Source: Planoprotostelium fungivorum (lineage: Eukaryota > Evosea > Variosea > Cavosteliida > Cavosteliaceae). Taken from it: DNA of 64,000 bases. The stretch's first letter is position 1. Every line of letters starts with the position of its first letter. The notes beneath the pieces are model-generated. The model was not told the origin of the DNA, searched no databases, and saw only the letters and a list, made by a program, of their open reading frames with translations. The position numbers and the translations under genes are program-made. The stretch spans positions 105,499 through 169,498 of the forward strand of contig MDYQ01000034.1 of NCBI GenBank assembly GCA_003024175.1. The letters are read 5' to 3'. This document shows positions 1-64,000 of the stretch, piece after piece.

Positions 1-3000
1 GATGTCAGGAGATTCGTATGCTTCTGTTTGTTCCTCACCCTTTGAATTGAGGGCGATGGATGTGCTGGGTAAGATGGCTAATTTACCCCAGCCACCGTGA
101 CGCATGCAGGTGGACATGAAGTAAAGTTTCTTGTGTGGACCACTCAGACCTGATCACGTGTCATCCATCATGTCTTCATTCCATAGAGATGTAGATGTAA
201 AGACGATGGCAGTGATGTGCACATGATCATCATCATCGTGTCACAGATGAAAAAAGAGATGATCACCGTGCAGAGACAGATGCTTGAGATCTGATCTGGC
301 CACCGCTTGAAACATCTCGTAACTGAATCGGTAAGACACTCTCGTCGCCGTCACCAGATTCGCGGCGAAGGCGAAATTATTCGATTTGTACTGATCTACA
401 ACGTGCTGCATCCTCATGAGAACATAGTTCTCTTCTGATCGCCTCGGGTAATGGATTCTGGCGGGAGAAAATGTGACGGAGCCGTACAATTGTTCTTCTG
501 CCTGGAGACACTGCTGCCACACCTGATGATAGAGTCAGAAGAGAAGTAAGAATCGAGATGAAGTATGGTCTACAACGAGCCGTAACAAAGTAGAAGAAGA
601 GGGGAGAGAAATAAAAACGTACGGCAGGGACGTCTTCGAAGACTTCTGCCTTTGTGGGGGGCTTCACGATCGGCTACCATCGATCAGTTTCTTCTTTCAA
701 AGACATTTATATCTTTTTCTCTATTTCTCACCTGTCTGAATCGACTCATGACACTGCTACTCTTCGTCCTCTCGTCTACAATTCGATCACTCCCGTTTCA
801 TTCTTATGAAACCCACCGATCTTCGTCTTGTGTCTTCCGATGGGCATGGGTTTCGATTGTAGATTGACCACTTCTTCTCTCCTGGCCTCGCTCATATTCA
901 TCTGCTGGCAGATCTGTTGGATTCTGGCTTCGATGCGGTCCGAAGGCGCCACGATGAACGTACACGGGTGCGTACTGTACTTCTTGTTACACGTGATCTC
1001 CACGGCGACCAACGTGCGGCCGTGGCCTGGGAATGTCAGATGAAATCTCGACGAAATCTCTCACCGTAACAAGACGTCATCCAGCCTGATAAGTACCCGG
1101 CCAACGAGGCACATTCGTGTTGGTTTCCGCCTTCTGACAGATGAATCTGTTAAACCTTCAGATCTGGAGTTGTCGACGTCGACATTTACCTTCAAGAACA
1201 TGTCTTCGTAATCAGAGTAGTACTCCACGACTTGACATTTCGACCAGCCTGTTGGAGGTGAGAAAAGTCGACGAAAAGTCACTGACCCAGGTAAGAAGTA
1301 AAGATGGCACCCGCCAGACCCGGGTGTTTCAATTCAATGAGACCGAAAGCATCGCAGTACGCCTCGGCGTCCGCTCTGCCCATGACCATCCACCTGATTT
1401 TCCGTGAACCTTCGATCTACAACGCGACATTTCACCTGTGGTAATTGTGTCCTTCTAACGAGCGGCTGGGAGCCAAGAAACCGAGTTCGTCTCGTAAGAT
1501 GGAGAGCATGGTTGGACCCATTTCCTGCAGGGAAGAAGCTCTGAGTAGGAGCGAGTTGAAATCGGAGATGGTGATGATGCCCTGTCATGCGATGAGAAAC
1601 AATTTTATTAATAAAATAAAAATTGTCACCTTTCGGATGTCGACCCTCGTCCTCGAATTGAAAAATACCTTGGCTTTTCCCTCGATCTACAACGAGTCAG
1701 GGTTTTCCATTAAGAATAGCCTCACCTGTTCCAGCGGCCCTACAGCTTCGGGGCTCAAAATAACCTTCTTCTGTCTGTTTCGACTGATCCGAACGCCCTG
1801 CCAAAACAGAGTTCGATTCTTCACCTTACCAGAATCGTCGACAGGAGACGACGGTGCAGAATTGGCCTGCGAAACCGTCAGTCATCGCGTCGACAATTCG
1901 TAGACAGAGTTAAAGGTTTCGTATTCTGTACCTGTGTGGCCGGTGGGTTACCATCGTAACTCTCGAAAGAGGACTGCTGCCACAGAGCTGGTTCGGTGGA
2001 AAGAGATGCCTCGTACAGCTGTTCGTCGCTCATGATCGTGTCACCACACTTGAGCACGTTGAGGACCCTGGGCTGTCACCGTTTCAATCCCCGCTCCCTC
2101 CCATTTTTCTCTCTCACGTCGACGTAGAATTCGTACTCGTGGGACTGTTTCTCCCACAGGAAGGCCAATTGATTTTCGATCAATTTGATCGTATCGAAAT
2201 TTACCTTCGAAGACGTCAGAATGGAAAACTCGTGGAGAATTTGCGGAGAATTCACCTCTCCCTCCTCCGTGTAAGCTCGGTTCTCGTTGACAAACGTGAA
2301 ATCTCTCATTAAGAGTCCCAAAAGGGGCACCCTTGGTCCCACCCTCTCCACCACCTCCGCTCGGTACCTAACACGTCATTACGTAACTCGAAATCTCGTC
2401 GACATACCTGGCGAAATTCTTCCCCGGGCTCATCTTTGCGTCCAAGTCATCGTAATCGATCTGGTCGCGTTCCGAAATATTGATCCACGCTCCTTTCAAT
2501 CTCTGTACAACGTAATGATTCAAGCCAGACACGACTGCCATACAACCCTCGAAATTTCCGAGGAGATCGCAGCGCTGGGAAGGTCAGGGAGGTGATGGGT
2601 GATGACGTCACCTTGGCCGTGCGTATCATACGTTCGATGATTTCGGTCTGACCCGCCCGACTCGTTTCCGTTACGATGCAACATTTGACCCAATCACTGA
2701 TCTACAACGCGATAAGACATCTCCACGCGAATGAGATGTCATCGTATGATATCATCACGTTTGACGTGTACACATACATATGATATCTCGAAATCTCACC
2801 TGGTTGAACGTGGCCGTGAGATCGTCTATGCTCTTCGTCTTCCTCTTCCCTTCGTCCCAATTCATCTTCACCATGCACTCTGACCCTGTCGAAATGTCAA
2901 CGAGTTTTCATCGACTTCTCCTTCACCTTTCATCTTCCTAAATTCATCGTACAATCGCAGCGTCAGGGCATCGCCCACGGCTTCAGGTGTGTAACGTAGA

Positions 3001-3776
3001 ATTGGTAGCAATTTCGAGTTACGTATGCCCATTTGTATGGTGTCCACCCTGAACGATCCACTCCTCGATCGTGAAGTCTGAGAGAATTGAGTGAAATTTC
3101 GCGTGGCAGGTAACATCACCAGGTCTAGATTGGTAGAGTGGCGGCGAGGTTTAGAGTTGAACTTCTGCATGCGAGCGGCTGATGTGACGAGGGTAGAGGT
3201 CTTCTCGTTTAAAGGACGTTCTGAGTCGTTCGGTGTGGTGGAAGACGTGGAAGTGGGTCGAGATGGCTCAATGGGGGTGGCGATCGAATCGGCACGATGT
3301 GATTTCATCTTTCGGATGATGAGGCGGGAAGGATTGGCCAGCTGCGTGTAGAATGAACGAAAGGACACGTGTAGAAGATGTCGGGTGTATGAGATGTGTG
3401 ATTCGAGAAATGTGCGATTGATATGGGAAGATGATGCAGATCGGAAAGAGAAGGTGATGGTGTGGGCTCTCATCTCACCCTTATAAATAAGAGTTTCAAT
3501 TCGTTCTTTCTACAGGGAAACTCATCGACCCTCTGAACGATGGAGAGTCTATCCTTTGGAGAGAAATCATCTCTGAAACTCTCGTTGAACCACATCAATA
3601 AGAAATCCATGGCACTGAACGTGTCGTCAATAAATGCGTCAGATGGACACATGAGACATGCGATGTATACCTCTCCATGGCTGCAGGATTGTCTATACTA
3701 TCGTCTAAACTACTCCAGTTTCAGAGATGGTGTGTAATATAGCATCCAAGACTCACAATTTCTGCCATATTGCCAT
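1..3776 (-). CDS. RasGEF-domain guanine nucleotide exchange factor, 3' end outside window
   Basis: Exchange factor predicted to load GTP onto a Ras/Rap-type small GTPase at membranes. The start is read at 3776 (MAIWQKF spliced to HGEVYIACLM), because this ATG gives the phase needed to join exon 2. Exon 2 (about 3690-3482) has a helical REM-like look (DFLLMWFNESF). A serine-rich linker (about 3350-3050) precedes the catalytic RasGEF core at about 3000-2060: LPILRYTPEAVGDALTLRLYDEF, ATFNQ-ISDWVKCC, CRDLGNFEGCMAVVSGLNHYVVQRLK, MSPGKNFARYRAEV, VPLLGLLMRDFTFVNE. These match RasGEF helices in order. Downstream, about 2000-1, are several exons I cannot name (MVMGRADAEAYCDAFG, VEITCNKKYSTHPCTFIV, KKLYFMSTCMRHGGWG); a ubiquitin-like or FERM-like fold is possible. 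The last visible frame is still open at base 1, so the C terminus lies outside. Introns are short; several end in CGTTGTAG. Confidence 0.8.
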
Positions 3777-4487: not shown

Positions 4488-6196
4488 ATGTCTAAGAGAA
4501 AGTTAAGAGAAGGTGAGATCGTGTTTCTGATGTGCATTCAATCAATCCTGAATCATATCTCGCACGATGTTGATATTGGAACATCTTCTCAATCCGTGTA
4601 GTTACAGCGCTGGTGAACAGCAACAATGAGACCTTCAAACATGTGAGTTGAAATGTTACTGTTTTCATTGATGTTGGAAAATTAGGAGATAGAGGAAGAG
4701 TTAATCATGGCTGAAGATGTAGAAGAAGATTTTGATGAGGACGTTGATGACGACGACGATGTCGATGACGAAGGAGGTGCGCTCGTCAGACATTCAATGT
4801 CAATCACAATCTCCACTTTGATTTCGATCCCTTACATGAATGCAGTCACCGAAGAAGAAGCCAAGGCATACTTGGCCTATCTCAACGATAAAGTGAAAGC
4901 CGAAGAGAAGAAAAACAATCGACTCCAGCCCCTCCGATTCACATCGAATGACGATGCCCCGAAACGTTTCTTTAACAAACAGAGAGTCCTCACTCTGGCC
5001 ACCAATGGTATTCACACACGTCACAGACATCTCCTCAATGACATACAAACCCTCCTCCCTCACTGCAAGAAAGAATCCAAGTTCGACCGAAATGGTACAC
5101 CTCGCGTTTCATTCGAATGAGACTGACGCGTTGTAGATCCCATCAGCAGCGTCACGGAGATCGCTGAATTGAGAAACTGCAACAACGTCATCTTCTTCGA
5201 GCAGACGCCCAGAGACTGTTTCATGTGGCTGTCCAAGAGTCCCAACGGACCCTCTGCCAAGTTCATCCTCTCTAACGGTACGAATTTATTTCATTTTATT
5301 TCGTTGAATTGGGACCTCAGTCCACACGCTGGACGAGTTGAAGATGATGGGAAACTGTCTCAAGGGAGGTCGTCCAATTCTTGTTTTCGACGACAATTTC
5401 GAGTCTAAGCCTCACTGGAAGGTCATCAAGGAACTTCTCTTCCAGGTAACCTCATCATCTCACCATCATCATCTTTCATCATCATCTCTACATCATCTCA
5501 TTCCGATCACCCGCATCATCATCGTCCACTCGTTCATCTCTCTCCACCACATGACGTCATGAGATGACCTCCCTCATCACCTTCATGACTCACCTTCTCT
5601 CAGACGTTCGGAACACCGAAGGGACATCCCAAGAGTATGCCTTTCATCGATCACGTCTACAGCTTCCACATCGCAGACGACCGCATCTGGTTCCGCCACT
5701 ACCAGGTGAGTTCCCGCCAAAAAGTGGTCCACCTTCTCATTCGAACGACCAGGTGGCCGAGGAGGACCCCGAGAAGAGGAGCGGTGAAGAGAATCCAACG
5801 GAGTTGGTCGAAATTGGTCCCCGTTTCATTTTGAACCCCATCAAGATTTTATCTGGAAGCTTCAGCGGTGGCACGTTGTTCCAGAATCACGAGTACCTCG
5901 CCGCTGTTCAGGTGATCAAATCTTCTTTTTTTTTTCACATTTTTGTGATGAAATCTTTTTCTTCGTGTGGAAATGTTTTTTTCGAGAAAATTTTTCTTTG
6001 GAAATGGCTGTGCGAATAAGAATGGCCGGTTGTAGATGGATGAGACGCTCATCATCATCAGGCCGAGAGAGATGCAAAGAAGCAACGCATGACGGGCAGT
6101 CAAAAGAGGACAGGGAACAAACAGAAGAAGGGAAAGAGGAAGGAGGAGCTCACGACACACGCCCCCACCTACCTCGACAATGTCTTCGAAGAATAA
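4488..6196 (+). CDS. BRX1: Ribosome biogenesis protein BRX1 (Brix domain)
   Basis: Nucleolar Brix-domain protein needed for 60S ribosomal subunit assembly. ATG at 4488 opens MSKRKLRE, followed by a small exon, an acidic exon (EEDFDEDVDDDDDVDDEG), then the Brix core: FFNKQRVLTLATNGI, RHRHLLNDIQTLLPHCKKESKFD, RNCNNVIFFEQTPRD, LWLSKSPNGPSAKF-type sequence (here MWLSKSPNGPSAKFILSN), LKGGRPILVFDDNF, HVYSFHIADDRIWFRHYQ. It continues EIGPRFILNPIKILSGSFSGGTLFQN and a lysine/glutamine-rich basic tail ending PTYLDNVFEE. At least eight short introns were read; the one at about 5096-5136 ends CTGACGCGTTGTAG. Convergent with the next gene, the two stops being 16 bp apart. Family assignment is secure; the second small exon is less so. 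Confidence 0.93.
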
Positions 6197-6212
6197 AATG
6201 TCTCTCCCTCTT

Positions 6213-6891: not shown

Positions 6892-7763
6892 TGTTATGTC
6901 GATGTGATCTCGCCTGTAATTTTCGCTATCATCTACAAACACAAATTTCCATTTTCCACACAATATATCACTCTTTTGATGATATTCTGTGGAGGATGCT
7001 GGACATCCATGGCTATGAGCTGAAATCGAGCCAAGTAGACGCTTCCGATCTAATTCACCAAGTACATGACTTCCGTCACGGTCATCGATGAAACATTCAC
7101 ATGAGACGATCAAACTCTGTAGAAAAACTCTATGTATATGGAAAATTCAAATGGTACTGGACCGGGCCGTCGTCGTATGTCGTAGTCGTAAGGCTCCGCA
7201 GGGGGCTGAACTCGTTCATACTTTGAAAGGAGCTGAACCATCCGATAGCCTCTCCATCATCACCTGTCTCCTCTTCGCTCGGTCTAGCGTGCTACTGTGG
7301 ACACTCGGTATTGCGCGGGGGCTATGTGCAGAGTACTGCTGTGCTGGGCGCGGGCGTGTGATGGTACAGGTGGTAAGGTGAGGTGATCTCGTTGATGGTA
7401 AGGTTGTTATGAAGTTACACAAAGGTGAAGGTGCTTGTGGTCGACGGAAATATCGATGAGGACGACAGACGCAATTCATTTGGTTTCCGGTGGAAATAGA
7501 AACGAGATTGCGTCTGAGATCTTCGATCGACTTCGAGGTTTGTCATGGAACTTCAGATGAGGGGGTAGATTTGGGCTGTACCGCGATACGTCGCAGACAG
7601 ATGGGATCGTTGTAGTGCGGTAGATTTCAAACTGATTTTCATCGGGTCACGTGTGCGAGCAGACAGAGTGGGCCCACTCTGATTGACACCGAGTTTTTAG
7701 AGAACACGCTGAAGGTTTCATCTGAAGAAGAAAACACCGACGTGCTGTCTTCAAGTGAGATCA
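6892..7763. other. Intergenic stretch between two divergent genes
   Basis: Upstream of the TMEM242-like gene (-) and of the MBL hydrolase gene (+). Open frames at 7088-7381 (+) and 7216-7479 (-) have no recognisable family and no supporting splice signals; I regard them as chance. No tRNA or known ncRNA was recognised. It probably holds both promoters and the 5' leader of the hydrolase. Confidence 0.4.
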
Positions 7764-9513
7764 ATGAATGCAATCCTCGATCGTGAACAACACAATGTCG
7801 CAAAAATAGAGAATAGAAGAATCAACTCACTGTCTAATTCAAGATCAGATCCGTCAACATCAAATCGACGATCTTAGTTTTAGAGCCCCTTCCATCTCTT
7901 CATTATCTTCTTCAAGTGCCTCAGCACAAAGATTCATTCAACGAAATGGACAGCGCAGAGTGACTCTTCATTTCCATCTTCCATCCTCAACCATTCACAG
8001 AACGAACACAGCAGCCGCCCGCCTGAAAGAGGTCTACCCTGATCTCTTTTTGAAAAAGAAACAGATCAAAGCACGATCTGAATCAGACATCATCGTAGTT
8101 GGTTGTGGAACCAGCGCAGGTATGCCTCGTCTCGGCTGCCTTCTGGAGGTGATGTTATTCTTAGCCACGCACCATTGAAGTCCATGATACAGAGACCAAC
8201 CAAGTGTGATGTCTGTCTAGACGCTCTCACGCCCAACAGCAAGAACCGAAGGCGGAATCCCTCCATTCTCATCCGTTATAAGGGGAAACACAATATCTTG
8301 ATCGATTGTGGTGAGCAGATCGTCAGATGTCGATACATTGATCATAACACATTACACGCGTGAGCTGAAACATGAGAAGGAAAGACATTTCGTGAGTCGA
8401 TGGTGAACCTGATCGCCCGAACTGGCATCACAAGGATCGACGCCGTCATCATCACCCATCAGCATTCCGACGCCATCTTGGGGTGATTTTAATTCATTTT
8501 ATTCTCACATCCATAATCTGAGGACGTTTCCGTTGACTTGAAACAGCCTCGATGACCTGAGAGAGTTCACAGAGAACCACGCTGTACCTGTCTACGTCTC
8601 AGACGAAGATTTTCCGACCATCCAGAGAGTTTTTCCGTACCTGGTCGACACGTCCAAGGTGAGAGTCCATCTACAACGCGCAGACTCACCGTTTCCAGTC
8701 CACGGGGAGTGGTTACGTATCGAAGATCCAGTGGAAGCAGTTCTCTAGAAACGAATCGTTTGACGTGCTGGGTAAGAAGACATCATCGTGCGGCCGATCG
8801 CCTCATCATGGTGACACGTCACAGGCCTCACCTTCACCCCCCTCCGATTGGATCACGGTCCGGGTAATTACTGTCTGGGCTACGCCTTTGGAAAGATCCT
8901 CTATTTATCCGACCTCGTCGGCGTCACACCGGAAGCCCGACAGGTGCATCATGTCATCACCTCCATCTGATCACCGCAGACGGTCGAGCAGCTCATGAAG
9001 AACGAGGCGGGTGACATCGACGTAGACCTCCTCTTTATCGATGCCCTCCTCTTCCATCACACGAACGCGTCCCATTGGAATCTCGTCCAATCGATGAAGT
9101 TGATCCAAGAGTGGAAACCAAAGAAGACGTTGCTCGTTGGAATGGGCCACGAATTTGATTATCGTGTGACGAACAATGTGTTGCAGAGATTGAAAGTACC
9201 TTACGAGCCAGAGTTGGTGCGTCTCATCATCTTCATGCGAGATCACACGTGTTGATCGGTCGATGTTTCACGATCGATCGCATCACAACGTGATGATTGG
9301 ATGATGTCTGATGACACGATGTAGGAAGTGAAGAAAGAGAAGAAGGACAAATCGTGGAAGGAAGGAAAGACGGAGAAAGAAATCGAAGACATCAAGAAGA
9401 AGAAGAGGAGGACCATAGAGAGTGTCTTGAGAAAGGACATCGATCGCAGCGTTCTGGTGGACGTGGAGATGTCTTACGATGGTCTGTGTATTCCGGTCGA
9501 TCTGCCTCAGTAA
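7764..9513 (+). CDS. PhnP-like metallo-beta-lactamase superfamily hydrolase
   Basis: Cytosolic phosphodiesterase-like MBL-fold enzyme of the PhnP type, substrate unknown in eukaryotes. After an unresolved N-terminal exon (a possible ATG is at 7764; the coding frame is certain from about 7882) come IIVVGCGTSAGMPRLGC and CDVCLDALTPNSKNRRRNPS (a CxxC pair, as in PhnP metal-binding sequence), then ILIDCG and the metal motif ITHQHSDAILGLDDLRE. The usual final His of HxHxDH is Ala here, as is typical of this eukaryotic subfamily. Next are LRLDHGPGNYCLGYAFGKILYLSDLVGV and the C-terminal LLVGMGHEFDYR. A lysine/glutamate-rich insert (KKEKKDKSWKEGK) follows before the end CIPVDLPQ. About eight introns; the one after DTSK at 8659 contains ATCTACAACG. 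Confidence 0.85.
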
Positions 9514-9978: not shown

Positions 9979-12115
9979 ATGCAACGCATCTTCTATTCCG
10001 TGTTTTTCACCTTCGTCACACTGACAGTGGTCTCTGGTCAGATCTACGGAATCGATTACACGGCCAGCCGAGACAACCCAGCCCGCTGCGCAACTTACGA
10101 TGAAGTCTATAATGATCTTCTCATCCTCCGCAACCACACGTCACAGGTCCGCCTCTATAACGTCCACGAATGTAATCAAGGTAACTTTACTTTGAGAGCC
10201 GCCAAGGCCCTTGGCATGAAGGTCAGTTGAACACATGCGATTAAAACACTCCTAACGAGAACAGGTCTTTCTTGGCATCCAGAATGATCCTCTCGATGTC
10301 GTCTATTGGAGTCTATACATCATCCAATGGGTGGATGATAATTACGGAGTGGCTGACATCATTACCGGCCTGACTGTCGGCTGCGAGTCTCTTTTGAGGA
10401 AAGATTTGACCGTAGAAACGGTAGTCCAACGGATCAGCCTGGTCAAGGTGAATAGAAGACACCGACATCATGGTCTCTGATCCGGTGTCTTTAGAACTGG
10501 ACGATATCCATGGGCTACACGTTTCCGGTCGGAACTGCCGAATATACAACCGCAGTCGTCAACTATGCAAAGCAGTTGGGTCCAGTCTGCGACATCATCC
10601 TCTTCAATGTGATATCATCTTGATGTCCTCTTCTTCATCTCACCTCTTTCAGATCTTCCCCATCTACGAGGGAACGCTCATCCGCTCCGCCACAGACACT
10701 TCATCTGCAGATCACATCGTGCAACGAGTGAAGACTGTCCAAGCTCAATACCCCAACACCACCGTCATGATCGGGGAGACCGGTTGGTCCTCTTATAATT
10801 CACAGAGCGCTCGGGTGATTCAACGTTCATTCATTAGAACATCATCCATCTCTCCGATCTTTGTTCCATGGATGAGACTGACAGGCCTTCAGAATGGAAC
10901 GATCACTCTAGATTGGTATCTGAAGCAGATGTCGTGCAGATGCTTTAAAGAGAACATCCCCCTCTTCTGGTTCGAAGCCTTCGATCAGCCTTCCATGACC
11001 GATCCGAGGTGCGCATTCACACGAGACATCACGTACTGACTCGTTGTAGAGAGGCAAACTGGGGTATTTACACCAATTCGAGACAGCCTAAGTTCAATCT
11101 GACATCTTGGGACTGCACGAGTGAGTCGTTGTATAATGAAATGAATCTCTTAGCATCTTCAGATAAGGGTTACCCTTACCTCCCACCCACTTCGACGTAC
11201 TACAACGCGCCAGTCTCCACGTCGGCACCCGTCGTCACGTGCCACAACATGTACGACACACTCCAATGTCGTATCTACAACGAGGACCCCTCTCAAGTCA
11301 ACTCAACCACCGTTGGAAACATCCTCAACTATCTCTGCAACCAAAACGAGGCGTACTGCTCTCAATTGGCCACCGGAGCAGCATACTCTCGTTGTAGTGC
11401 GACCCAGAGGGCCTCCTGGGCCATGGACCAATTTTGGCGGGAAAATCACAACGTCCAGGGCGAGACGGCCTGCCAATTCGATGGCTTGGGACAGATCGTC
11501 TACGACAATCTGGACGATACGTACGCCTGTCACTCCATGTACGCCTCCCTGTCTTGTCGGACTCCATCAGAGGACCCGTCTCAATCGAATGTGACGCTGG
11601 CTGGTGACACCCTTCAGTGGATCTGCTCGAATTTTCCGCAGAATTGCGCGGGCATCGCTCCAGGCGGTCAGTACGCAGGGTGTAACGTCGTAGAGAGGCT
11701 ATCGTACGCAATGGACAGATTCTACTCGGAAAACGGGCCCAGGCAGGGGGACAGCGCCTGCTACTTTGACGGACAAGGTCTCATCATCGAGAGGGTACCG
11801 TTGGACACGATCACTGTTGCCGTCTCGAACTCTCCCGCCATCTCTTCTCTCACGAACGTGCCGATGTCTTCTGAAACATCACTGACGTCTTCACATCTGG
11901 CCGCATCATCGTCTAGAACATCATCATCACCGCCCCGATCGGAAGCATCTTCATCATCGCCATCGCGAGAGACATCGGAGGAGTCAGGGACGACAGCGGC
12001 AGCGACCAGCGTGAAGGTCAACGATCCACAGAACTTGGGTGCACAGGGCTCAGCTTCTTATTCCTTACCGTGTACCATCCTCTTTTTGTTCACCGTGCTA
12101 TCCTTAGTATTGTAA
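9979..12115 (+). CDS. Secreted GH17 endo-1,3-beta-glucanase with two X8 (CBM43) domains and GPI-type tail
   Basis: Glycoside hydrolase family 17 enzyme predicted to cut or remodel beta-1,3-glucan outside the cell. A signal peptide (MQRIFYSVFFTFVTLTVVSG) is followed by QIYGIDYTAS, VRLYNVHECNQ, the acid/base region LTVGCESLLRKD (family VGNE, here VGCE), and the nucleophile MIGETGWSS, then IPLFWFEAFDQPS and NWGIYTNSRQPKF. Two C-terminal X8 modules follow, each with six spaced cysteines (CHNMYDTLQC..., CHSMYASLSC...), a Ser-rich linker, and a hydrophobic end (LPCTILFLFTVLSLVL) typical of GPI addition. Exon ends used: 10221/10265, an intron with GTGAATAG donor, GTGATATC donor, CGG before GTGATTC with acceptor CCTTCAG, and 11008/11050 (acceptor CTGACTCGTTGTAG). 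Asn to Cys next to the acid/base Glu is unusual. AATAAA follows the stop. Confidence 0.9.
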
Positions 12116-12332
12116 TAAACTCGACGAAATGAATGAAACGTTATCTCGTCACACGACGCACGATGCTCGACGAAGGGGTGTGTGATCTCACAAACGAAAG
12201 AGAATAAACTATTCCACAGTACACATCAGAGCCTGTACGTGGCACAGAGAGAGAACAAGAGCAAGTGTTTGAAAATAGATGCTATGTGAGATGAGAGATA
12301 GGTGGTAGTACAACACGTGTATTTCATTCGTG

Positions 12333-15300
12333 TCAAAAGAGGGTGAGCTTGAAAGATTGTTGGTAATCCATCGTGACTGGCCCATAGTCCCCCATCATAA
12401 ACTGGATGACTCCAACTGTCATCATCAGTCGATCACGATCAACGCTGATCCTCTCGATCATCATCACGAGTGTGCGATCACTCACTTGTTATGGAATCTT
12501 TCAAGAGAGCATTGATGGCACCACCCAGGTTGAACGCCAATTGAAATTTGATATCATCCAACTGTTTTGTATTGTGCGTCAGTCCAAATGGAACAGGAAC
12601 AATGGTCTGAGATGGTCAACACGAGATCACACATGACATCGTACCGAATAAGCCGTATCTTCCAGGTTTCCCATGAGAGACCAGTTGGAGCTGTCGTACA
12701 CCTGCGAAGAATGAATCGTGATTAAAATGAAATAAATCACCAGAAAATTCTGTAACGCTTTGATCGAATAGACAGTTTCGAATGGGTTGGCCAAGGTGAT
12801 GACAGTCTGTACGTAAGTGAAAGAGAGAGCCGGTTTCACTTGTACCTGTGCCACGTCATCATCCTGTTCCGTCTACAACGCTCACTTTGGCCAGGAGATG
12901 TGTCTTCTGACCGGTGAAATTCATCTGCGTACTGAGACGTAACATTCCATCCGATAGGAGGGGCACGTTACCGTGGTTACCATGCAATTGGATGGTAGAA
13001 CTGTTGCCCTGAGTGTAACGAGAGAAGAACACTCTCTCGGCCGACTTATCACTGGGTGATACGTACATTACGTCTCCGGACACACTGTACACGCGTCAAC
13101 GCTCCGAATTCTACCCGAAATTTCACCTGTTATCACCGGGCTTCAGATTGACATTACGCATGGTGATGTTACCGATCGAGGTGCCTTGAAAGAAGATGTC
13201 CAGAGCTAGGGAAGACACTTGTAGTGAGACAATGGTGGGGTTACGTATGATTACGTCGGCAACCATGGTTAAGCCCCATACGTAACCACCGGTCACGGCT
13301 TGGTTGTCATCGACCATACGGATCGATCCCGCGGGGAAACCGGAGAATCCTACGGAATTTCAGTGTCACGTACGTACCGATGCGTAGAGTACGTACCCCC
13401 GATGTACACGGGAGACTGGAAGGGTATATCGTCCAAGACGAAAATTCCGAGAACGGTCGATACGTAAGCCTTGGCCCATCCACCGATAGTTACGTTGGTC
13501 CCTTCCGTCAGAACGATATCTTATATGATGTCATGATGACGTCATCATGCATCATTCTCACCTGAAGTGACACGTCCGAATTTTTCTCTGTCTGAAACGA
13601 TGATGGAGGTACCGCTCATGCTGAACTGCAATATCTGCCCCGCCTGATCACTTTTGGCGGGAGAAAATGGAGAATAATCTGTGGATGAAGCGATGATGGC
13701 GTTGTCCCTTATCATCTGCAATTTGACGGCGACCTGGATCGTGTCAATCTACAACGGGATGGTGGCGGGTTGTAGATGGATGGTACCTGGGTGACGGACA
13801 GTGGAAAGTCGAAGGGTGAGTAGAATCCGGCCGTGACGTCACTCGATAGAGGCACCACGCCCGAATCCTGGGAATCACCACCGATCCCGGGAATGGTCAG
13901 TCCCAGGGATCCCAAAGTCAACGCACCGATCAACTTCATATTGGATGGACCTGTCACCGTGAGACACGGTTTTACGTACGTACAGTACTCACCGACGACG
14001 GTCGTGGTGATGTTGAGGGAGCTGATGATGTCTAAAACCCAACGAGGTCTGTCATCACTTCTCTTCCTGTGGTCGCTGTCATCAGTTCCCGTGGCAATCA
14101 CTTCTGTGGGTAGACCGTGTACGTATCGATTGAAGAATTCTTCGATCTACAACGAATAAAANTGAGACACGGTTTTATGTACGTACAGTACTCACCGACG
14201 ACGGTCGTGGTGATGTTGAGGGAGCTGATGATGTCTAAAACCCAACGAGGTCTGCCATCACTTCTCTTCCTGTGGTCGCTGTCATCGGTTCCCATGGCAA
14301 TCACTTCTGTGGGTAGACCGTGTACGTATCGATTGAAGAATTCTTCGATCTACAACGAATAAAAAATAATTCCGTCGATCTACAACGCACCACCGGGGCG
14401 GCGAGAGTCGAATTTTCCGGTTTCAGTTCTCCGGACGTAACGATGACGTTGGCGCCTGGTACTATGGTAACGTCGTACGCTTTTACGTTTCCGATGCATT
14501 GTCCCGATCGGTACAGACGTAAAGGCATATCACCCATGTACATGCTGATCACCTGGAGGGTGAGACGAAATTTGGATGAAAACTCACCGATGGGTTCTGT
14601 AGAACGATGGTGATGGACATATTGATGCCACCGGTGAGGGTGTTGGAAGGCATGTCCAGGCGGGAAACTGTGTTGTTGGCCAGGTTACCGAAACCTGAAA
14701 TTTCGATGAGTTTCCTCTTCGTACAATGTGGGTATTCACCGACGACCTTCACTTCCTTGTTCAACTTGATGTGACTGCAAAAGTCAACCTCTTATTTTAA
14801 TCCTATTTTATTCGTTTTATATCCTAGACAACATATGAACGATCCACGTGTGATGATTTCCATCTTTCGTTCACGTGTGACAATTTCTATCTCATGTTCG
14901 CATGTGATGATGTCAGATGTCGATGCTACAAAGATGGAATGGATGAGAAGTTGTCTCACGGATAATAGTGACCCAACACCGTCACGTGGACGACACCACT
15001 CAATTTCCACATCGTATCGTTCTTTGCAACCAGATCCTGGGCAAAGTGTGTCCACTGCGTGTGATTGGTGATGCCCACCACCTTCTCGTTCAGAGCGATG
15101 TCTGTCGTCGATCCCTTCGTTCGTATCAGGTGAGATGATGCAATGCATCAGATGCATCAGATGTATCAGATGATGAGTGTCTCACGTGGGTCGTTGTATC
15201 GGGGAGGAACATGTATGCCATCAGAACGTCTTCATACGAGATGGTGATTGAACCTTCGGGTGGTGTGGCGTCCACGACGGGATCCGTCTTTCCGTCTGGA

Positions 15301-16640: not shown

Positions 16641-19600
16641 ATGGCAACAGCAGGGGCGATTCACGATGAATCGTGGACGGTGAAGGCAGACGAGCTGGTC
16701 GATTTCTTCAAGAGGAGGGATGAAGGAGATGGACAGTCGTTGAAGGAGCTGAGGAACAAGTACAATGGTCCAGAGGGATTAGCACAGCTTCTAAAATCAG
16801 ACGCGAAACACGGATTGTCTGCAGAGGTGAGAGACATCCAACAGAGCTCAAATGTATGATATGGTTCTGATACCCATGTTTCAGGAAGTTCCCTCTGCTT
16901 ATGCAGCCAGAAAAGAGATCTATGGAATCAACATCATCCCAGAGAAATCACCTCGAACCTACTTCGATTTCCTCTTCGATGCCTTATCAGACAGAACTCT
17001 CATTATTCTGATCGTTGCCGCCGTTCTATCCATCGGTTTAGAGACAGGATTTCCACCTCCGGGCGCTTCCAGAGCGTGAGTACCACCTCCTTAAAATAGA
17101 CACAAAAAAGTGAAGCACCTTCTAATGCAAAAAACAGTATCGCCTGGATTGAGGGAGTTGCCATTCTCATCGCCGTAGCTCTCGTCTCCAATGTGACGGC
17201 GGCCAATGATACCATCAAAGATCGAAGATTCAGACAGTTGACCGCCATCTCTGAGGATCGCAAGGTCCGTTGCATCCGTGGAGGACAGTGGTCGGTCATC
17301 TCCGTCAATGACCTCTTGGTCGGTGATATCGTCAGCGTAGAGACGGGAGATCGAGTTCCAGCCGACATAGTCCTCTTCGAGTACCAGGGCCTCCGCAGCG
17401 ATGAATCCTCCATGACTGGAGAGAGCGACACCGTAAAGAAGAACAAGGAGAACCCATGGCTCCTCTCCGGATGTTCGGTGAGACGGTGCATGTTCCATCT
17501 TCCATGCTGATGGACGTTTAGATCTCCGAAGGAACTGGTAAAGGAGTTGTCATCTGTGTGGGACCTCAATCTCAGTGGGGACTTATCAAGGCCTCCCTGG
17601 ATCAGGAAGAGAGGAAGACACCTCTGCAGGAGCACCTGAATGACTTGGCCGAGAACATCGGTAAGGCGGGTCTCGCCGCCGCCACGATCACACTCATCGG
17701 ACTCTTCATCCGAGTGAGTCATCACGACCACGATCTCTCATACATCCGTCTTCTAAATATGTTCCACCGTCACATCATCATCGCCTTGTCCATCCATCTC
17801 ATCATGATGATCACGATCTGATGTCACATCAGTGGGCCGTCCTCACTTTCCCACCCGGACAACCTCACGTGTGGAACAGCTACTACCTCGGAGAGTGGAT
17901 CCGATTTGTCATCATCGCCATCGTCATCATCGTCGTTGCCGTGCCAGAAGGTCTCCCCCTGGCCGTGACGCTATCTCTCGCCTACTCCATGTTCAAGATG
18001 ATGAAAGATCAGAACCTCGTGAGACATCTCGCCGCCTGCGAGACCATGGGTGGTGCCACTCAGATCTGCTCCGATAAGACGGGTGGGTCCATCTACAACG
18101 TTGTAGACGAGCTGACCGGAGCAGGTACCCTCACGCAGAACCGAATGACTGTCGTGAGATTGTGGGCCGCCGGGGTCAAATTGGAAGATCAACCGAAGGA
18201 TAAATCTGCCTTCACTCCGAAGGTGATCAAGTGATGAGAGATGAGGTCATGACGCTCATGACAGATCTTGGAACTGTTGAACGACGGAGTGTGCATCAAC
18301 TCATCGGCTGCCATTCAGAACAAGGACACCGAGAAACCAGAATTTGTGGGTCTGAAGACAGAGTGTGCGTTGCTCATGATGGCATCCAATCTGGGAACCG
18401 ATTACGAGACCGTCCGAAGGTACGTCCCTCTCGATTTTATTCTATTTTATTTCTCTCCACGTGATGTCTCACCCTCCTCTTCAGCCGCGGTAATGTGGCT
18501 CGCGCCTGGCCCTTCTCTTCTAAATTGAAGAGAATGTCGACTGCCGTTCGAACCGAAGACAAGATCCGTCTCTACACCAAGGGAGCTTCTGAAGTCATTC
18601 TTGACCTCTGCACTCACCAGTTCAACGCCGACGGCAGTGTAAAGAGCATGTCAGAGGAGAACAGGGAGATGCTGAACAATCTCATCAACACTTGGGCTTC
18701 TCAGGGGTTACGTACCCTTACGCTCGCAGCTCGCGAGCTTCCCAAGGAGACTGAATTCAGCGACGAAGGAGAGTGCCCGTACGAATCCAACTTGACCCTC
18801 ATCGGTATCGTCGGTATTCAAGACCCTCTCAGGTGAAATTCCGCGTAGATTCCAACGAAATCTCACGTAATTCTCAGACCCGAAGTCCCCAACAGCATCA
18901 TGATGTGTCAGCGAGCCGGCATCACTGTCAGAATGCTGACGGGAGACAACATCTTGACGGCCAAGCAGATCGGTAAATCGTGTGGAATCCTCACTGAAGA
19001 AGGAATTGCCATGGAGGGCCCCGACTTTAGAAAATTGAGCGTAGAGAAGATGGATCGAATCATTCCACGCCTCCAGATCATCGCTCGTTGCTCGCCCGGT
19101 GAGAATTTTCCGAGAATTTTCGAAGAAATTTCTGACGGTGGACAGAGGACAAGCTGACCTTGGTGAAGAGACTGATCGAGTTGGGAGAGGTAGTTGCCGT
19201 GACTGGTGACGGTACGAACGACGTTCCCGCCCTCTGCGAGGCCGACGTCGGTTTCGCCATGGGTATCTCCGGTACGGAGGTGAGCGTCTACAACGTTGTA
19301 GATCGAGTCACGTGACCCTCCTCAGGTGGCCAAGGACGCCTGTGACATCATCTTACTCGACGACAATTTCTCCTCCATCGAGAGGGCCGTCATGTGGGGC
19401 CGCGGCGTCTACGATGCCATCCGCAAGTACGTAACCCGAAATTTCACCGGAATCTCCCTGACATCCCCCAGGTTCATCCAATTCCAGCTTACCGTCAACA
19501 TCGTGGCCGTTACCGTGGCCTTTGTCGGAGCCGTATCGGGTGGTGACTCCCCTCTACAACCCGTCCAGATGCTGTGGGTCAATTTGATCATGGACACCAT

Positions 19601-23890: not shown

Positions 23891-24340
23891 TAATCGCTTG
23901 CATTCGAACGACTGTTCGACTCACAAATTGGTGTTGTCCTCCCATCTTTGTGTCTTCTTGTTTCTGTTGTTGAGTGACTGCTGATTCCGTGGAGTTCGAA
24001 AATCAGCTTGACGTCATCATCACCTGACCTGAAATTTCAGTCACCCGTTGTAGAGGGGTAGATCATTTTCGCCTAATATCTCTCTGCTATGCCCTTGAGA
24101 AGGTACAGCACCACACCTCCTACACTTGTACCCTCAGTTACCAATACATTTCGTATTCTGTGTCGATGGTGTTTCCGTTTGATATTCGTTCCAATGTCTT
24201 AAATATCTTCGGATATATTTAATTGCAAAGAATGGGGAGGAGAATCCTCCAAGTTGACGTGAAACAAGGCTATGGCACGTCACGCGTCAGGAATGCAGAC
24301 AAAATCTTCTGCTTCCCTTTCAAAAGCACAGCCCCCAAAG
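23891..24340. promoter_or_regulatory. Divergent promoter region between msrA and the GtaA-like gene
   Basis: Roughly 450 bp between two outward-facing genes with no convincing coding frame. An in-frame ATG at 24272 precedes the preferred signal-peptide start at 24341. It contains AT-rich stretches (GATATATTTAATTGC at about 24212) that may be promoter elements; this is inference. Confidence 0.4.
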
Positions 24341-39773: not shown

Positions 39774-41304
39774 ATGACCTTGGGTGATGATCTCGTTAGG
39801 ATATCAAGGCCACCGGTCGTGTTCCTCTCGGGTCTATTCCGCATGATCCTTCCGAACTTCTTGTCGGTATGGATGGGAGGAATCTTCATAGCTGCTGGTC
39901 ACACACTGCGAGCCACACAGGAGATAACGCGTCAACAGCTTCGTCAACAAGAGGATGCAGGTCGAGCCCTCACACCACGCTCACGGTGAGTTGTTGTGAC
40001 GTAATGGAAGTTCATGTGTGTAGATTGTGGAATCAAGAAGAAGCTCACAGACTCAAATTGGATCTCATACAGAGAGATATGGATGCAGAGAGAGAGAAAA
40101 TCGGCCGTATGGTCGAAGAGTTTGAATACTTGAGAGGTACGAGAGAAGAGATGCACAAGGAAGCCCTCCAAGATCTGGAGACACAGCTCGAGGCTGCCAA
40201 TCAGCGTAATCGCGATCAAGAGGATCAGATCCGAAAGTTGACTGCCGTTCGAGCCAGAATCACGAACAGAGAGAAGGTGACAGAAGAGATCTTGTCTACC
40301 ACTCGATCATTTTTCCTCGTTCCATCATCGTGTTCACGTTTACGCAGGAGCTAGAACACCAAGTCAACCAGTTGAAGAAGGAACTCAGTAAGAGACAAGA
40401 AGATGTGAAGACGGTACAGAGACAGGTGTGTTGATGATGTCCACCATCATGTGCTAATCGTGACACACAGGCGTATGAGACCTCGAATGAAAGAAACAAA
40501 GAAGTGTCTTCAAACCAAAAGAAGGTGTCTACTGTGGTTGGACAAGTGCACTGGAATAGATAGTCTCACTTGTGGCGATGTCGTAATGGATGCAACACCA
40601 GATGATCGTGGATAGAACTGACCATGGACAGTAAGCTGATCGACGTGGCTCTCATGTGTTCAGAGTTGTGCGTCTATCGTGGTTTATGCTTCGTGTCTGC
40701 ATTCACACCAATCGATGATTCGATTGAGCCTGCCTTGATTGGAATACGTTATTTTGAATTCAGCGTTGTAGATGCAAAACGAGAAGGCGGGACTTCAAAT
40801 TTTGAAAACCGTTGAAAGGGAAGCATCAAGAGAGGACGGTTTCAAGGACTATCGAACACTCACGTTGAAGAGGCATCTACATACTTGCAGAGGTCCATCC
40901 TATCGCCTCCAGAACCCAATGAAATGCAAATCTCGAAGACGACCGCCTCTGCTCCAATGCTGCCGCCAAGAGAAACCTCCTCCTCTTATATGTTCCCTCC
41001 AAAACTTTTTCGGTTGGCCACTCATATGGGCATCTTGTCCTCGAATTCATCTCCCCCGGCCCGACTCAACCGCTCGACACCGACCTGGAACCATCCCGAC
41101 CTCCAACGAGAGCCCTTGGGGCATTCCGTTGGACATCACCTCATTAGCCATCTCTTCTCATCGTCCTCCAATTCTCCAGTGAGTCTACCGACCTCTCCTC
41201 TATCGCTGACTCCTTCAGAGTCTCTAAAAACGTGTCCGGAGGGACGCGGTAACACATCTTCATGTCGTGCTGTATGGTCTTTCACCCCGACGTGCGGCCA
41301 CTAA
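39774..41304 (+). CDS. Coiled-coil protein with N-terminal hydrophobic segment and Ser/Pro-rich tail
   Basis: The reading VVFLSGLFRMILPNFLSVWM-GGIFIAAG suggests a membrane anchor. It leads into TRQQLRQQEDAGRALTPRSR, then a long coiled coil: LWNQEEAHRLKLDLIQRDMD, REKIGRMVEEFEYLRGTREE, ALQDLETQLEAANQRNRDQE, ELEHQVNQLKKELSKRQEDV, KEVSSNQKK. A 247-nt intron (40525-40771), several times the local norm, precedes NEKAGLQILK. The C terminus is Ser/Pro-rich (RSILSPPEPNEM, SSSSNSPVSLPTSPLSLTPS) and ends PTCGH. The start is uncertain: ATG 39774 is in frame; an upstream exon at about 39570 (SCSICGRRLRDIFRRGTK) could belong here but does not join in phase. It ends 7 bp before a tRNA gene. Confidence 0.6.
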
Positions 41305-41311
41305 TCACCAC

Positions 41312-51884: not shown

Positions 51885-54800
51885 TCAGAGCACCTGCATC
51901 ACGTCATCAGCCAAAGTCCACACATCATGAGATCTTCCCACCTTCTGTATGGTGATCGACTTTCTGATGTGTTCCTGCATGGAAGGACTGCTCGACCAGA
52001 TCTGAACAAAGTTGTTGGTCGATTGTCTCAATATCTGCTTGCCATGACTCTGAAGATTTCTCTCCGCTCGCACTTGTGACTCGTGGAGATCGTTGAGCGC
52101 CTGCTGTAAGATTTCGAGGTGTTCTTTGCTGCGTCGTCTCATCTCTTCTAAGACCTTCTCGAGGGCCTCGGATTGTACTCTCTGGTGCTCCAGACGAAGT
52201 TCGTGTGCTTTGTGGAGCTGTCATCGTTTCATCAGTTGAGGCAATGGTGATGATGCTGTGTGTGGATCATGTGATGATGTTGACGATGATGTGACGTGAT
52301 GATGGTGTGATGATGGATCACTGACATCCGTCTTTTGTATGGTGAAGGGAACACCCATCAAGTCGTTCATTCGACTCTCTGCTTCTGTCTTCTCGGCGTT
52401 ACTGATCTCCGTCTGTTCTGTCATCAAGTGGAAGAAGAAGTCTTCTAGGTCTTGTTCCTCCTGAAAATAAAATCTATCGCATTTGAGTTGTCACGATGAG
52501 ATTCGTAAGATGATGATGATCATCATCGTGATGATGTTGCTGATGACGAGATCTCACTTGATGATGGAGACTTCTTCTTCCTGCTTTCGCTCCGTTTGTT
52601 TCTGGATGTTTGTGACAAAGTTGGTTTCGAGCGTATTGATCTTTTTCAAGAGCCGCAGCTGTTGAGCGTTCTCCCATTGCAGTTGAATGATGCGAGCTTC
52701 GTGTTTCCTCAATTCTTCTTTCATCTATCTCGGCCATCAATCTCACCGACCGAGATGACGATGATGATGTGATGATCATGATGGTGTCTGTGATCACCTC
52801 TAAAGATGACGATAAGTTTTCGGTAAATTTCTTATCGTTGGCTTCAAAGTGGCTTCTTATCAGCGTCGCATGGTTGAAATTGTACAGATTGATCAGATCC
52901 CTCTTCCTCGACTTTCCCGCGCTTCAGTCGATTTCAAATTTCGAATTCCTCACCTCCGTCTTCAACGTGACTTCTTCGAGGTGAACTTCCAGGGTGATCA
53001 TCAACTTTTCGAAATCTTCGTTGAGAGCATATCTCATCTGTGTCCTCAACTCTCTCAGTCTCTGTCGCATTTGCATGGTGAATTGATCCACAAATTGTAC
53101 CTATCACCCATCAGCCATCCCGATGACGTCACGATGACGAATGATGACGTCATCACAACTTACTTCGTAATCTACGGCGCTCCTGGCGCAATCGTATTTA
53201 AGCCTCTGCTGATCTTCTGAAATGGCGGCCTTCTCTGCAATTATGGAATCTTTCAGCTTCTGTTGAGCTTCCTCGTACTCTTGCATGAGTTCGGCTTGAT
53301 GCTGGCTATAAATAGCCTCGTTGGTCTGTCTGTGTTGCTCCTCCATGGCAACCGTGTCTAATTTCGGATTCTCTTGTGATAGAACTTTCATCTGTCTCGT
53401 TGTAGATCGAGACCGAAAAGATGAATCACCTTGATCTTCTGCTCTTTCATCCTTTGTTTCTCTTCAATTCTGAATTGTTTCGTCCTTCTCTGCGTCAATT
53501 TTATCAAAGACGAAATCGATTACCTCGTCTTTTGATTGCCTTCAATCTCGCTCAGACCCTCTCTGTTGCTCTCCTCCAACGCCTCACACCTCAACGCGCT
53601 GATCCGGTCGATCATGAGCAAGCGTCCGATCACGTTGTGTCTCTGAACTTTCCTCTCTTCAAAGAAGATGCCGTTCTTGATGTGTACCGCCGTCGACGCG
53701 TAATCTTTGAACCTCTTGATCCTCTTCGAGAGCGTCTCCTGTTGGTTCTCCCTCATCTTCTCGTTGAGGCTGAGGAGACCTTCGAATGCGGCTTGGTCGA
53801 CGGCCTCGCGCGTCACTTCGTCTTGTGACAGACGGAAGAGGAGGTTGACGGTTGAATTCGGTAGATCTGAATGGTTCGATTGGATCTTAGATCGAGTGCA
53901 GTGAGATCTGGCCAGTTTGATTCGGTCCTGAAGCGTTCAGTGTCGCAGTTGGGATGCATCGATATGTGGGAAGGGAGATTTCTATGGAATTTCTATGGAA
54001 TTTCGATCACTTTCGTCCAGGTCTCCAATGTCTTTCTCAATTGTTTGAGTTGAGCCCTCTGTTCTTGCTCTAAGGCTTGAGCTTGGTGTTGGTGCCGATT
54101 GGACGTTTCAGATTCTCTTGTGGACATGCTCTTGTTCGCTTGTTCTCTGTACTGCTGCAGATTCTTCTCTCTGTCTTGTACAGATTGGATCAAAGACTGC
54201 AAGAGGGAGTCCTGAGCAAGTTTGAATTTCAAAGGCGGAGTGTGGCGGGAACTCACTTTCATCAGGCGACGTTGTATGGAATTTGGGTTGAGGTTTTCTG
54301 TGGACGTTCGGAAATATTTTGCATCTCCACGATTCGATGGGAAGTTTGAATTCTTCCCACGTATGATGTCGTACAACACGGCAGCTTCACTATACGAAGA
54401 GTCATACTCTGTAGAAAGAATAAAATGAAATAAAATGCACACCCCGTGAAAATGGGAGGCATCATTTTCGATGCTGGTTTCAGATCTTCAATTCTAAATT
54501 TGGCTGGAGAAGATGGAATCTGTTCTCGTGAGAACAGATAAAAAGATAAAACCATCGATTGACAAAAAAATCTCACTTCGGGGAATAAAAATTCTTCTCG
54601 GCTCCAACCACTCGGGTTTCGACTGGCCTTGGGAAGGACTGGAGTGATATGCTCCACGGATGATTCGGACACGGCCTCATCGTAAGAGGCTACCGTGTAC
54701 GTCAGGCGAGATTTCATCCAATTTTCTCACGTAAAGTAGGATAGCTGTACTGTTTGACCATTTGCGGTTGCGATTCGTACGGGTTTTCATCGAATTTCGT

Positions 54801-57163: not shown

Positions 57164-57403
57164 TTTATAGATGGTCTCATCATTTCTTCGCATTGGATGT
57201 TGTGTCTTTGGGCGGTGGCTGTGATGGTCGATGTTGTTGGATTAATCGACGTTGATCTACATTTGAAGCTGATCAGGTTCTGGGTACACGGGAGAGACAT
57301 TTGGCAGAATCACTTAAATCTCTTACCAAGAGATTTTGCTCTTGTCATCAAGTCACAGGAGTCACCGTTGAGTAAGAGCAGAAGTATCCGCTGACACCGA
57401 ACG

Positions 57404-63101: not shown

Positions 63102-64000
63102 ATGTCCCTCGCATGTGACCCTCGATTAGACTGGCGGAACTGTTCCGATGAGTGGAAGGGTCAGCTCTCCACGTTTTACTATGCAGGTGGAAGATAATCA
63201 CAAACGAAGTGAGATGTTGTCGCACACTGACTCAGCAAACAGCTTGCATCTGGTCGGCGTGCACCTTATTGACGTGCACGGCGAGAGCCGTCGGCACATA
63301 CTCTCGAAGAGGGTGGCCAGGACAGCCAGACTTTCTCATCCTTCCACAGATCGTCGGCTCTGGTGAATGGAGAGTCGTCTTTCATTCTGACTCGCCTCAG
63401 CTGCACTCGTTGCCTATTCTTTCTGGCTGGCTCTCTCTCTCTCTTTCACTGCTACTTACGTTTCTTCTGTCGCCACAGAGATCCTGTGGTCTTTGCCTCT
63501 CGCTCTGGACGCCTACAGTCACGTGGCCCTCTCCATTCTGTTGCGGATGGTCCAAAATGCATCACCATCTCAGCTCTTGGAATCGAAGAAGTTATATTCC
63601 AAAGCCAGAATTTATGGAATTCTTCTGGGAGTATGTTTTCGTGAAGTTGACATCTTCTCATTCTCTCAGATGTTTCCCATCGCAGGTATGGGAGGTGGTG
63701 CAGCTCTAATTGCCTACTTTCCACAATACGGGAGATATAGTATACTCTTATCCACCATACCATCTGCTCTTCTCAACATCCTCTTTCTCGTTCTAATGTC
63801 CCTCTCCCTTGTAGAGGTTAAGAAGGTAAACTCTTCTTCAGATTTCATTCTCCACATCATCCCACGAGCATCATTGCGATAGCACCATCATCAGCGTGCA
63901 CGATGCTGATGATCTCGTCAGACGTCGGCAAGATTCCCAAAGAAGGCGAAAGAGTCTATCTTCTTCTGTCTCGTCTACAAAGCTCTCTGGCTGCCCGCTT
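63102..64000 (+). CDS. Multi-TM protein of the DUF4395-like array, copy C, 3' end outside window
   Basis: Third paralogue, cut by the window edge. ATG at 63102: MSLACDPRLDWRNC, STFYYAA joined to VGTYSRRGWPGQPDFLIL, ALVAYSFWLALSLSFTATYV, LWSLPLALDAYSHVALSILL, NASPSQLLESKKLYSKARIY, IAGMGGGAALIAYFPQYGRY, LNILFLVLMSLSLVEVKK, then TSARFPKKAKESIFFCLVYK. The acceptor used by copies A and B in intron 1 (CAG) is CGG here; an AG six bases downstream (GCGAGAG) keeps the frame with two residues lost. Exon 2, intron 2 and the start of exon 3 are essentially identical to copy A. Confidence 0.75.

What the first reader, a model, noticed from the sequence alone, without database searches (positions are those of the whole stretch)
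1..64000. A dispersed palindromic intron motif (CTACAACGTTGTAG and half-sites) across unrelated genes
Seen: the decamer ATCTACAACG or its reverse complement occurs near 394, 1414, 1684, 2699, 5129, 8669, 13747, 14144, 14347, 14378, 18091, 19293, 26560, 32694, 36802, 40764 and 53399, nearly all in introns (one copy, 11273, is coding). About 0.1 is expected by chance for a 10-mer on both strands of 64 kb. Full palindromes occur at 18092, 19288 and 36779. It lies in either orientation relative to the host gene. Inference: it could be a splicing aid (hairpin or factor site), a DNA-binding site placed in introns, or the scar of introner-like intron gain.
Basis: partly seen in the sequence, partly recalled or inferred. 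Interest (0 to 1): 0.9.

Follow-up and report, generated by a model that had tools for sequence, protein, structure and literature searches.

The report
Exact palindromic word in short introns
In one stretch of an unidentified single-celled eukaryote's genome, the same short palindrome-forming DNA word sits almost unchanged in many tiny predicted introns of unrelated genes, which suggests that something in the cell reads it, most likely as double-stranded DNA.

Summary
In detail: 19 ATCTACAACG against 0.12 expected, and three perfect CTACAACGTTGTAG palindromes. The window looks eukaryotic; its genome is not held. My own gene finder gives 20 gene models and 240 introns, median 46 nt. Of 33 CTACAACG words, 24 lie in introns (2.14/kb in short introns, 0.17 in exons, 0.23 between genes). 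Six introns end exactly in CGTTGTAG, so the word's TAG is there the predicted 3' splice site. Conservation is sharp-edged; exact intronic copies number 24 against about 0 expected, one-mismatch copies 12 against 4.7. An eroding mobile element should leave decayed copies and similar flanks, so an introner scar is not favoured for this word. Copies occur in both orientations (sense-biased 14:3), as palindromes, and above chance outside introns. Other palindromes and perfect inverted repeats in general are enriched in the same introns. Best reading (0.38): a site read on double-stranded DNA inside gene bodies, some copies doubling as acceptors. An RNA splicing element (0.30) is a close rival. What reads it is unknown, and all rests on one 64-kb window.

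The parts
1394..1435 (-). 42-nt intron (RasGEF gene), sense CGTTGTAGATCGA 11 nt after 5' splice site
   Evidence: gene named by Pfam, but this junction lies outside the Pfam match
1687..1725 (-). 39-nt intron ending in CTGACTCGTTGTAG (branch-like CTGAC plus word as 3' splice site)
5095..5136 (+). 42-nt intron of Brix-domain gene ending in CGTTGTAG
   Evidence: junction inside Pfam match
8659..8698 (+). 40-nt intron with solo antisense word (CTACAACGCG); metallo-beta-lactamase-fold gene
   Evidence: junction inside Pfam match
11009..11049 (+). 41-nt intron ending in CTGACTCGTTGTAG, in a GH17-like gene
   Evidence: junction inside a weak Pfam GH17 match
12846..12885 (-). 40-nt intron, sense word 5 nt after 5' splice site
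13734..13786 (-). intron with ATCTACAAC and GTTGTAGAT as 9-bp inverted arms, loop 13
14350..14390 (-). 41-nt intron with two sense words 30 nt apart, the second at the 3' splice site
18083..18124 (+). 42-nt intron with perfect palindrome TCTACAACGTTGTAGA, splits the DKTG|TLT motif of a PMCA-type Ca-ATPase
19280..19325 (+). 46-nt intron with perfect palindrome, same Ca-ATPase (GTE|VAK)
25997..26067 (+). 71-nt intron of glutaminase (GtaA) gene ending in CTGACTCGTTGTAG
   Evidence: gene named
26538..26585 (+). 48-nt intron with solo antisense word (assigned by hand; gene finder read it as coding)
   Evidence: junction inside the Pfam GtaA match of the protein without it
32671..32710 (-). 40-nt intron of PP2C gene, sense word 6 nt after 5' splice site
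   Evidence: junction inside Pfam match
36779..36824 (-). 46-nt intron with sense word, then perfect palindrome whose TAG is the predicted 3' splice site
53392..53429 (-). 38-nt intron with solo antisense word 6 nt from its 3' end
7608..7615 (.). intergenic copy of the word, about 330 nt before a predicted ATG
24046..24053 (.). intergenic copy between two divergent predicted genes
40764..40773 (.). intergenic copy of the decamer
11200..11397 (+). three exonic copies within 200 nt of one coding exon

Best explanation
CGTTGTAGA(T/C)(C/G)G / CTACAACG is a sequence-specific recognition site, not a remnant. Shown in this window: it is kept almost letter-perfect in predicted introns of unrelated genes; on average its flanks share nothing; it occurs in both orientations, as solo half-sites and as perfect palindromes of two half-sites that share the central CG; it is also above chance in exons and between genes. 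Inferred: it is read as duplex DNA by a protein that binds a palindrome as a dimer or a half-site alone, acting inside gene bodies (transcription or chromatin), with introns carrying most copies because they are the least constrained DNA inside genes. Also inferred: where a copy lies in sense just behind a CTNAC branch-like site, its TAG serves as the 3' splice site. Other palindromes enriched in the same introns (TGACGTCA, GTCACGTGAC, GTACGTAC) would be sites of the same general kind.
For: Exact intronic copies 24 (each palindrome counted twice) against about 0 expected, one-mismatch copies 12 against 4.7; for the 10-mer all 10 one-mismatch forms differ at the first, second or last letter. 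Information content is near zero outside roughly -6 to +12 of the core in 26 non-coding copies. Antisense copies in introns 5 against 0.06; three introns hold an antisense word and no sense one. Three perfect palindromes, none with 1-2 mismatches. In exons 6 against 1.77 in synonymous-codon resampling (0 of 60 reach it), between genes 3 against 0.25 (0 of 100). The six exonic copies are 3 sense, 3 antisense (read). Other palindromes behave alike in introns: exact TGACGTCA about 8.6-fold above chance with one-mismatch forms at 1.2-fold; GTCACGTGAC 6 counts against 0.27 with one-mismatch forms 2 against 2.8. TGACGTCA is 0.71/kb in short introns, 0.06 in exons, 0.16 between genes.
Against: Density is about nine times higher in short introns than between genes, odd for an ordinary transcription-factor site. 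Intronic copies are sense-biased, 14 to 3. Six of 39 TAG acceptors carry CGTTG before TAG, and three introns share the end CTGACTCGTTGTAG, which points to splicing. The exonic excess leans on three copies in one exon. Some word-bearing intron pairs share more than the core: 19280 with 32671 over about 33-35 nt, 8659 with 26538, 18083 with inverted 19280, which suits common descent. Position-clustering of the sites, as in a control region, was not found. The likeness of TGACGTCA and GTCACGTGAC to bZIP and bHLH sites is recalled, not tested. No binding data exist.
Confidence: 0.38

Rival explanations
1. RNA-level splicing element: CGUUGUAG(AU) in the pre-mRNA is bound by a splicing factor, either as an extended branch-to-acceptor signal or as an intronic enhancer; palindromic introns fold it into a small hairpin.
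For: Sense CGTTGTAG is the top intron 8-mer, 18 against 0.10; 14:3 sense bias; six introns end in it; three identical ends CTGACTCGTTGTAG; introns fold slightly better than shuffles, mean z -0.34 +/- 0.09, against 0.04 in exons and -0.11 between genes.
Against: Three introns carry only the antisense word and three carry palindromes; position along the intron varies from 3 nt after the 5' site to the very 3' end; stems with one mismatch show little excess, G-U no more than A-C overall (arms 8: 5 against 3.0 and 5 against 4.5; arms 7: 13 against 10.6 and 20 against 13.6); the share of strongly folded introns (z < -2) is 6.1%, the same as between genes; excess also outside introns.
Confidence: 0.3
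2. Introner-like element: many of these short introns arose from small inverted-repeat insertions, and the word is a terminal inverted repeat that brings its own 3' splice site.
For: Introns at unrelated positions share sequence far above chance: alignment score >=26 in 52 same-strand pairs against 4.8 and 24 opposite-strand pairs against 2.8 among 154 introns, while exon and intergenic controls are near chance, with a small excess in minus-strand exons (4 against 1.2, 3 against 0.7); perfect inverted repeats with arms >=8 in 20 of 188 introns against 3.1; more than in chimeras of swapped intron halves, 14 against 3.3; a few word-bearing pairs align over 20-35 nt.
Against: No consistent direct repeat at splice junctions in 201 introns; no average similarity beyond the core; few decayed copies; reverse complements of introns do not score as introns above shuffles except at the highest cut (8 against 3.8 at score 9).
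Confidence: 0.17
3. Mutational origin: quasi-palindrome correction or template switching keeps making perfect inverted and direct repeats in short introns, and the shared words are by-products.
For: Both inverted (17 against 2.9) and direct (16 against 4.8) repeats >=8 nt exceed shuffles in 188 short introns; stems with one mismatch are hardly in excess; intron words are found inverted in the intron's own 60-nt flanks slightly too often at 7 nt (57 of 175 against 44.7).
Against: Does not explain why the same 8-12-nt word recurs in unrelated genes; no excess of flank copies at 9-10 nt; intergenic DNA shows a weaker excess of inverted repeats (5 of 259 against 1.9).
Confidence: 0.06

Closest known systems
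Introners of Gozashti et al. 2022 (PMC9860276; passages seen)
   Same: Related sequence in introns of unrelated genes; some families carry terminal inverted repeats and their own 3' splice site
   Different: There intron families are grouped by sequence similarity, and 49 of 130 assessable families show target-site duplications; here on average only 8-12 nt are shared and no consistent duplication signal was found
Amoebophrya introner elements (PMC7789003; passages seen)
   Same: 8-20-nt inverted repeats inside introns, direct and inverted repeats together
   Different: There mostly non-canonical splice sites and 3-5-nt direct repeats overlapping the junctions; here GT-AG models and no such signal
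Symmetrical sister stwintrons of Hypoxylaceae (PMC8469720; passages seen)
   Same: Internal palindrome, inverted repeats, no flanking duplication
   Different: There 45-55-nt terminal repeats and highly similar sister introns; here short words
ATF/CREB (TGACGTCA) and E-box (CACGTG) palindromes bound by bZIP and bHLH proteins (recalled, no call)
   Same: Exact short palindromes read on duplex DNA; both words are denser in these introns than in exons or between genes
   Different: I know of no factor for CTACAACGTTGTAG; a full-text search for it and for its 12-letter core found 0 papers in the held open-licence library

Membership tests
Introner / introner-like element | Copies similar over most of the intron | tested here: not met
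   Near-zero information outside the core in 26 copies; the best word-bearing pairs align over about 20-35 nt, so a few pairs may be kin
Introner / introner-like element | Target-site duplication at the junctions (some families) | tested here: not met
   201 introns of all kinds, isolated positions up to z = 3.1 but no run of matching positions; not tested on word-bearing introns alone
Introner / introner-like element | Inverted repeats within the intron (some families) | tested here: met
   20 of 188 with perfect arms >=8 against 3.1 expected; among word-bearing introns 5 of 17
Introner / introner-like element | Intron presence/absence between strains at the copies | not testable with these tools
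   Own genome not held, no relative found
Amoebophrya-type introner | Non-canonical splice sites | tested here: inconclusive
   My gene finder allowed only GT/GC-AG (script first given); word-bearing introns in conserved domains fit GT-AG
Duplex DNA recognition site | Palindromic and orientation-independent | tested here: inconclusive
   Palindromes and antisense copies present, but 14:3 sense bias in introns
Duplex DNA recognition site | Core kept exact, flanks free | tested here: met
Duplex DNA recognition site | A protein binds it in vivo | not testable with these tools
   needs pull-down or footprinting
RNA splicing element | One orientation in the transcript, fixed place relative to splice sites | tested here: not met
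   6 of 19 word-bearing introns have it at the predicted 3' site, the others at varied places; three are antisense only

The most novel reading that the evidence does not exclude
The short introns of this protist carry a small vocabulary of exact palindromic sites read on duplex DNA inside gene bodies: introns serve as docking places for DNA-binding proteins, and the spliceosome makes second use of some of them as acceptors.
Probability: 0.25. Interest if true: 0.8.

Novelty: new variant of a known kind. Interest (0 to 1): 0.55.

Why it matters
Introns of about 45 nt are usually thought to hold little more than splice signals. A nearly letter-perfect word repeated through them would mean that they carry a second message, and would give a direct way to ask whether compact genomes use introns as DNA-level control sites or as splicing code. 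It also shows that repeated intron words need not be introner scars.

Tried and rejected
Introner scar with target-site duplication: tested, no consistent signal. Introns spliceable from both strands: suggested by CTCAC inside introns, dropped because 22 of 29 CTCAC start 12-19 nt before the 3' end and so look like branch sites, antisense CTGAC is not enriched (GTCAG 7 against 4.9), and antisense intron scores equal shuffles except at the top. RNA hairpin selection: weak folding excess and little excess of G-U stems. Copying from own exons: no excess at 9-10 nt, a weak antisense one at 7 nt (57 against 44.7) and 8 nt (17 against 12.9). Local clustering of sites: none within 1 or 3 kb; 13 of 19 intronic sites lie in the first 20 kb against 6.1 expected, but that cut was chosen after seeing the data. 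Relatives elsewhere: a 17-mer gave 4 viral contigs, taken as chance and not read; a 24-mer gave 0 genome contigs; metagenome contigs were not open to search. Rfam at gathering cut-off: only a tRNA. Organism: amoebozoan-like by impression only (Protostelium was a guess behind paper searches); not established. Gene finder: one search ended in an error, over-called introns (803) and was dropped, one search added an intron cost and is the one used.
Full report
WHAT IS THERE. ATCTACAACG occurs 19 times on both strands against 0.12 expected, and CTACAACGTTGTAG three times, with none at 1-2 mismatches. The window is 46-52% G+C by 4-kb block and has intron-rich genes and a tRNA-Leu with extra length, so it is eukaryotic; no whole genome is held for it. 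I therefore built a two-strand gene finder from the window itself: 20 gene models, 240 introns, median 46 nt, about 35.8 kb coding. Some models surely fuse neighbours or misplace ends; at least two introns were missed (26538-26585 and one near 19426-19470), and long predicted introns are the least reliable.

ARE THE INTRONS REAL. The two palindromic introns of the Ca-ATPase gene fall at DKTG|TLT and GTE|VAK; the spliced protein aligns to plasma membrane Ca-ATPase 2 (9gsd, E 1.5e-159) without a gap at either place. Junctions of word-bearing introns in the PP2C, metallo-beta-lactamase-like, GH17-like, GtaA (26538) and Brix genes lie inside Pfam matches of the spliced proteins; those at 1394 and 1687 lie outside the RasGEF match and the one at 25997 outside the best GtaA stretch. 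No RNA evidence is available.

WHERE THE WORD LIES. Of 33 CTACAACG words, 21 are in introns of up to 90 nt (2.14/kb), 3 in longer introns, 6 in exons (0.17/kb) and 3 between genes (0.23/kb); introns make up 24% of the window (binomial p = 5e-9). Exonic copies exceed synonymous-codon resampling (6 against 1.77) and intergenic copies a Markov null (3 against 0.25); three of the six exonic copies lie in one exon. In introns the sense form CGTTGTAG occurs 18 times against 0.10, the antisense form 5 times against 0.06 (before the hand-assigned intron was added). Without the tandem-duplicate copy and the palindromes the count is 14 sense to 3 antisense. Six introns end exactly in CGTTGTAG, 6 of 39 TAG acceptors; three share CTGACTCGTTGTAG, a branch-like CTGAC plus the word.

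HOW IT IS CONSERVED. Aligning 26 non-coding copies in one orientation gives CGTTGTAGA(T/C)(C/G)G with weak extensions to about -6 and +12 and nothing beyond. In introns there are 24 exact and 12 one-mismatch copies of the 8-mer, expected about 0 and 4.7; all ten one-mismatch forms of the 10-mer differ at the first, second or last position. Palindromes count twice in these numbers. An exact core with unrelated flanks is what a recognition site gives; an eroding repeat should give graded decay and shared flanks. Against this, a few word-bearing pairs do share more: 19280 with 32671 also share their last ten letters, and 8659 with 26538 and 18083 with inverted 19280 align over about 21-22 nt.

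THE WIDER SETTING. The word is the strongest case of something broader. Short introns hold perfect inverted repeats: arms >=8 in 20 of 188 introns against 3.1 in dinucleotide shuffles, and 15 of 171 against 3.6 without the word. Hairpins with arms >=8 and loops of 3-25 nt are 16 against 2.1 in short introns, 6 against 2.5 in long ones, 11 against 11.1 in exons, 7 against 5.0 between genes; palindromes of 12 or more are 13 against 3.0 in short introns, 4 against 9.1 in exons, but also 8 against 3.4 between genes. Direct repeats are in excess too. Both survive a null that swaps intron halves (14 against 3.3, 9 against 3.0). One-mismatch stems show at most a 1.5-fold excess at arms of 7 and none clear at 8 and 9, G-U no more than A-C overall. 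Introns also resemble one another above chance in both orientations (score >=26: 52 against 4.8 and 24 against 2.8 in 154 introns; without the word 25 against 2.8 and 10 against 2.3 in 137), while exon and intergenic chunks are near chance, with a small excess in minus-strand exons (4 against 1.2, 3 against 0.7). Recurrent items include TGACGTCA, GTCACGTGAC, GTACGTAC, GTGAGTTCCCGCCA at three 5' splice sites, and a module near TCGACGACATTTCGACTTACGTA.

HOW IT MOST LIKELY WORKS. I favour a site read on duplex DNA by a sequence-specific protein within gene bodies (0.38), because copies are exact, palindromic or half-site, occur on both strands, and are above chance outside introns. The acceptor use of six copies would then be secondary. 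A splicing element in RNA is a close rival (0.30), resting on sense bias, acceptor use and intron preference. Introner-like gain (0.17) accounts for shared sequence and inverted repeats in the intron set as a whole, and may well apply to some introns, but less well for the exactness of this word. Shown by calls are location, orientation, exactness and the wider repeat excess; the reader of the site and its effect are inferred.

AGAINST WHAT IS KNOWN. Passages, not whole texts, were seen of three papers: introners across eukaryotes (PMC9860276), Amoebophrya introners (PMC7789003), symmetrical stwintrons (PMC8469720). All describe larger shared units than here. A full-text search for the palindrome found no paper; a search for introner with Amoebozoa listed two papers, of which I saw only the listing; the library holds only open-licence papers. 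That TGACGTCA and CACGTG are bZIP and bHLH sites is recalled.

LIMITS. One 64-kb window, self-made gene models, no expression data, no relative, no named organism. Many tests were exploratory, so single p-values should be read with that in mind.

Noticed in passing
13960-14364: A 203-bp tandem duplication (98% matches) covering parts of introns and exons, with a single N at 14162 near the joint; it may be an assembly artefact and doubles one motif copy.
   Followed up: partly
57400-64000: Related genes in tandem whose proteins are alike but whose introns at matching places have partly diverged; introns at 58484 and 61160 carry GAGATCTC and GAAATTTC at the same place, a paired change that keeps the palindrome (read by eye).
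   Followed up: no
5706, 44286, 54212: Three introns begin with the same 14 nt, GTGAGTTCCCGCCA.
   Followed up: partly
2368, 19767, 47297, 20343: A second intron module near TCGACGACATTTCGACTTACGTA; in 20343 it lies inverted so that its GTAAGT is the predicted 5' splice site.
   Followed up: partly
all short introns: Branch-site-like CTNAY near the 3' end, mostly CTGAC, CTCAC, CTCAT, CTGAT; CTCACC is 16 against 3.0 in intron interiors.
   Followed up: yes
1-20000: 13 of 19 intronic copies of the word lie in the first 20 kb against 6.1 expected; none of the 29 merged sites lies beyond 54 kb (cut chosen afterwards).
   Followed up: partly
41312-41407: tRNA-Leu (CAG), 96 nt by ARAGORN, possibly with a short intron.
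   Followed up: no
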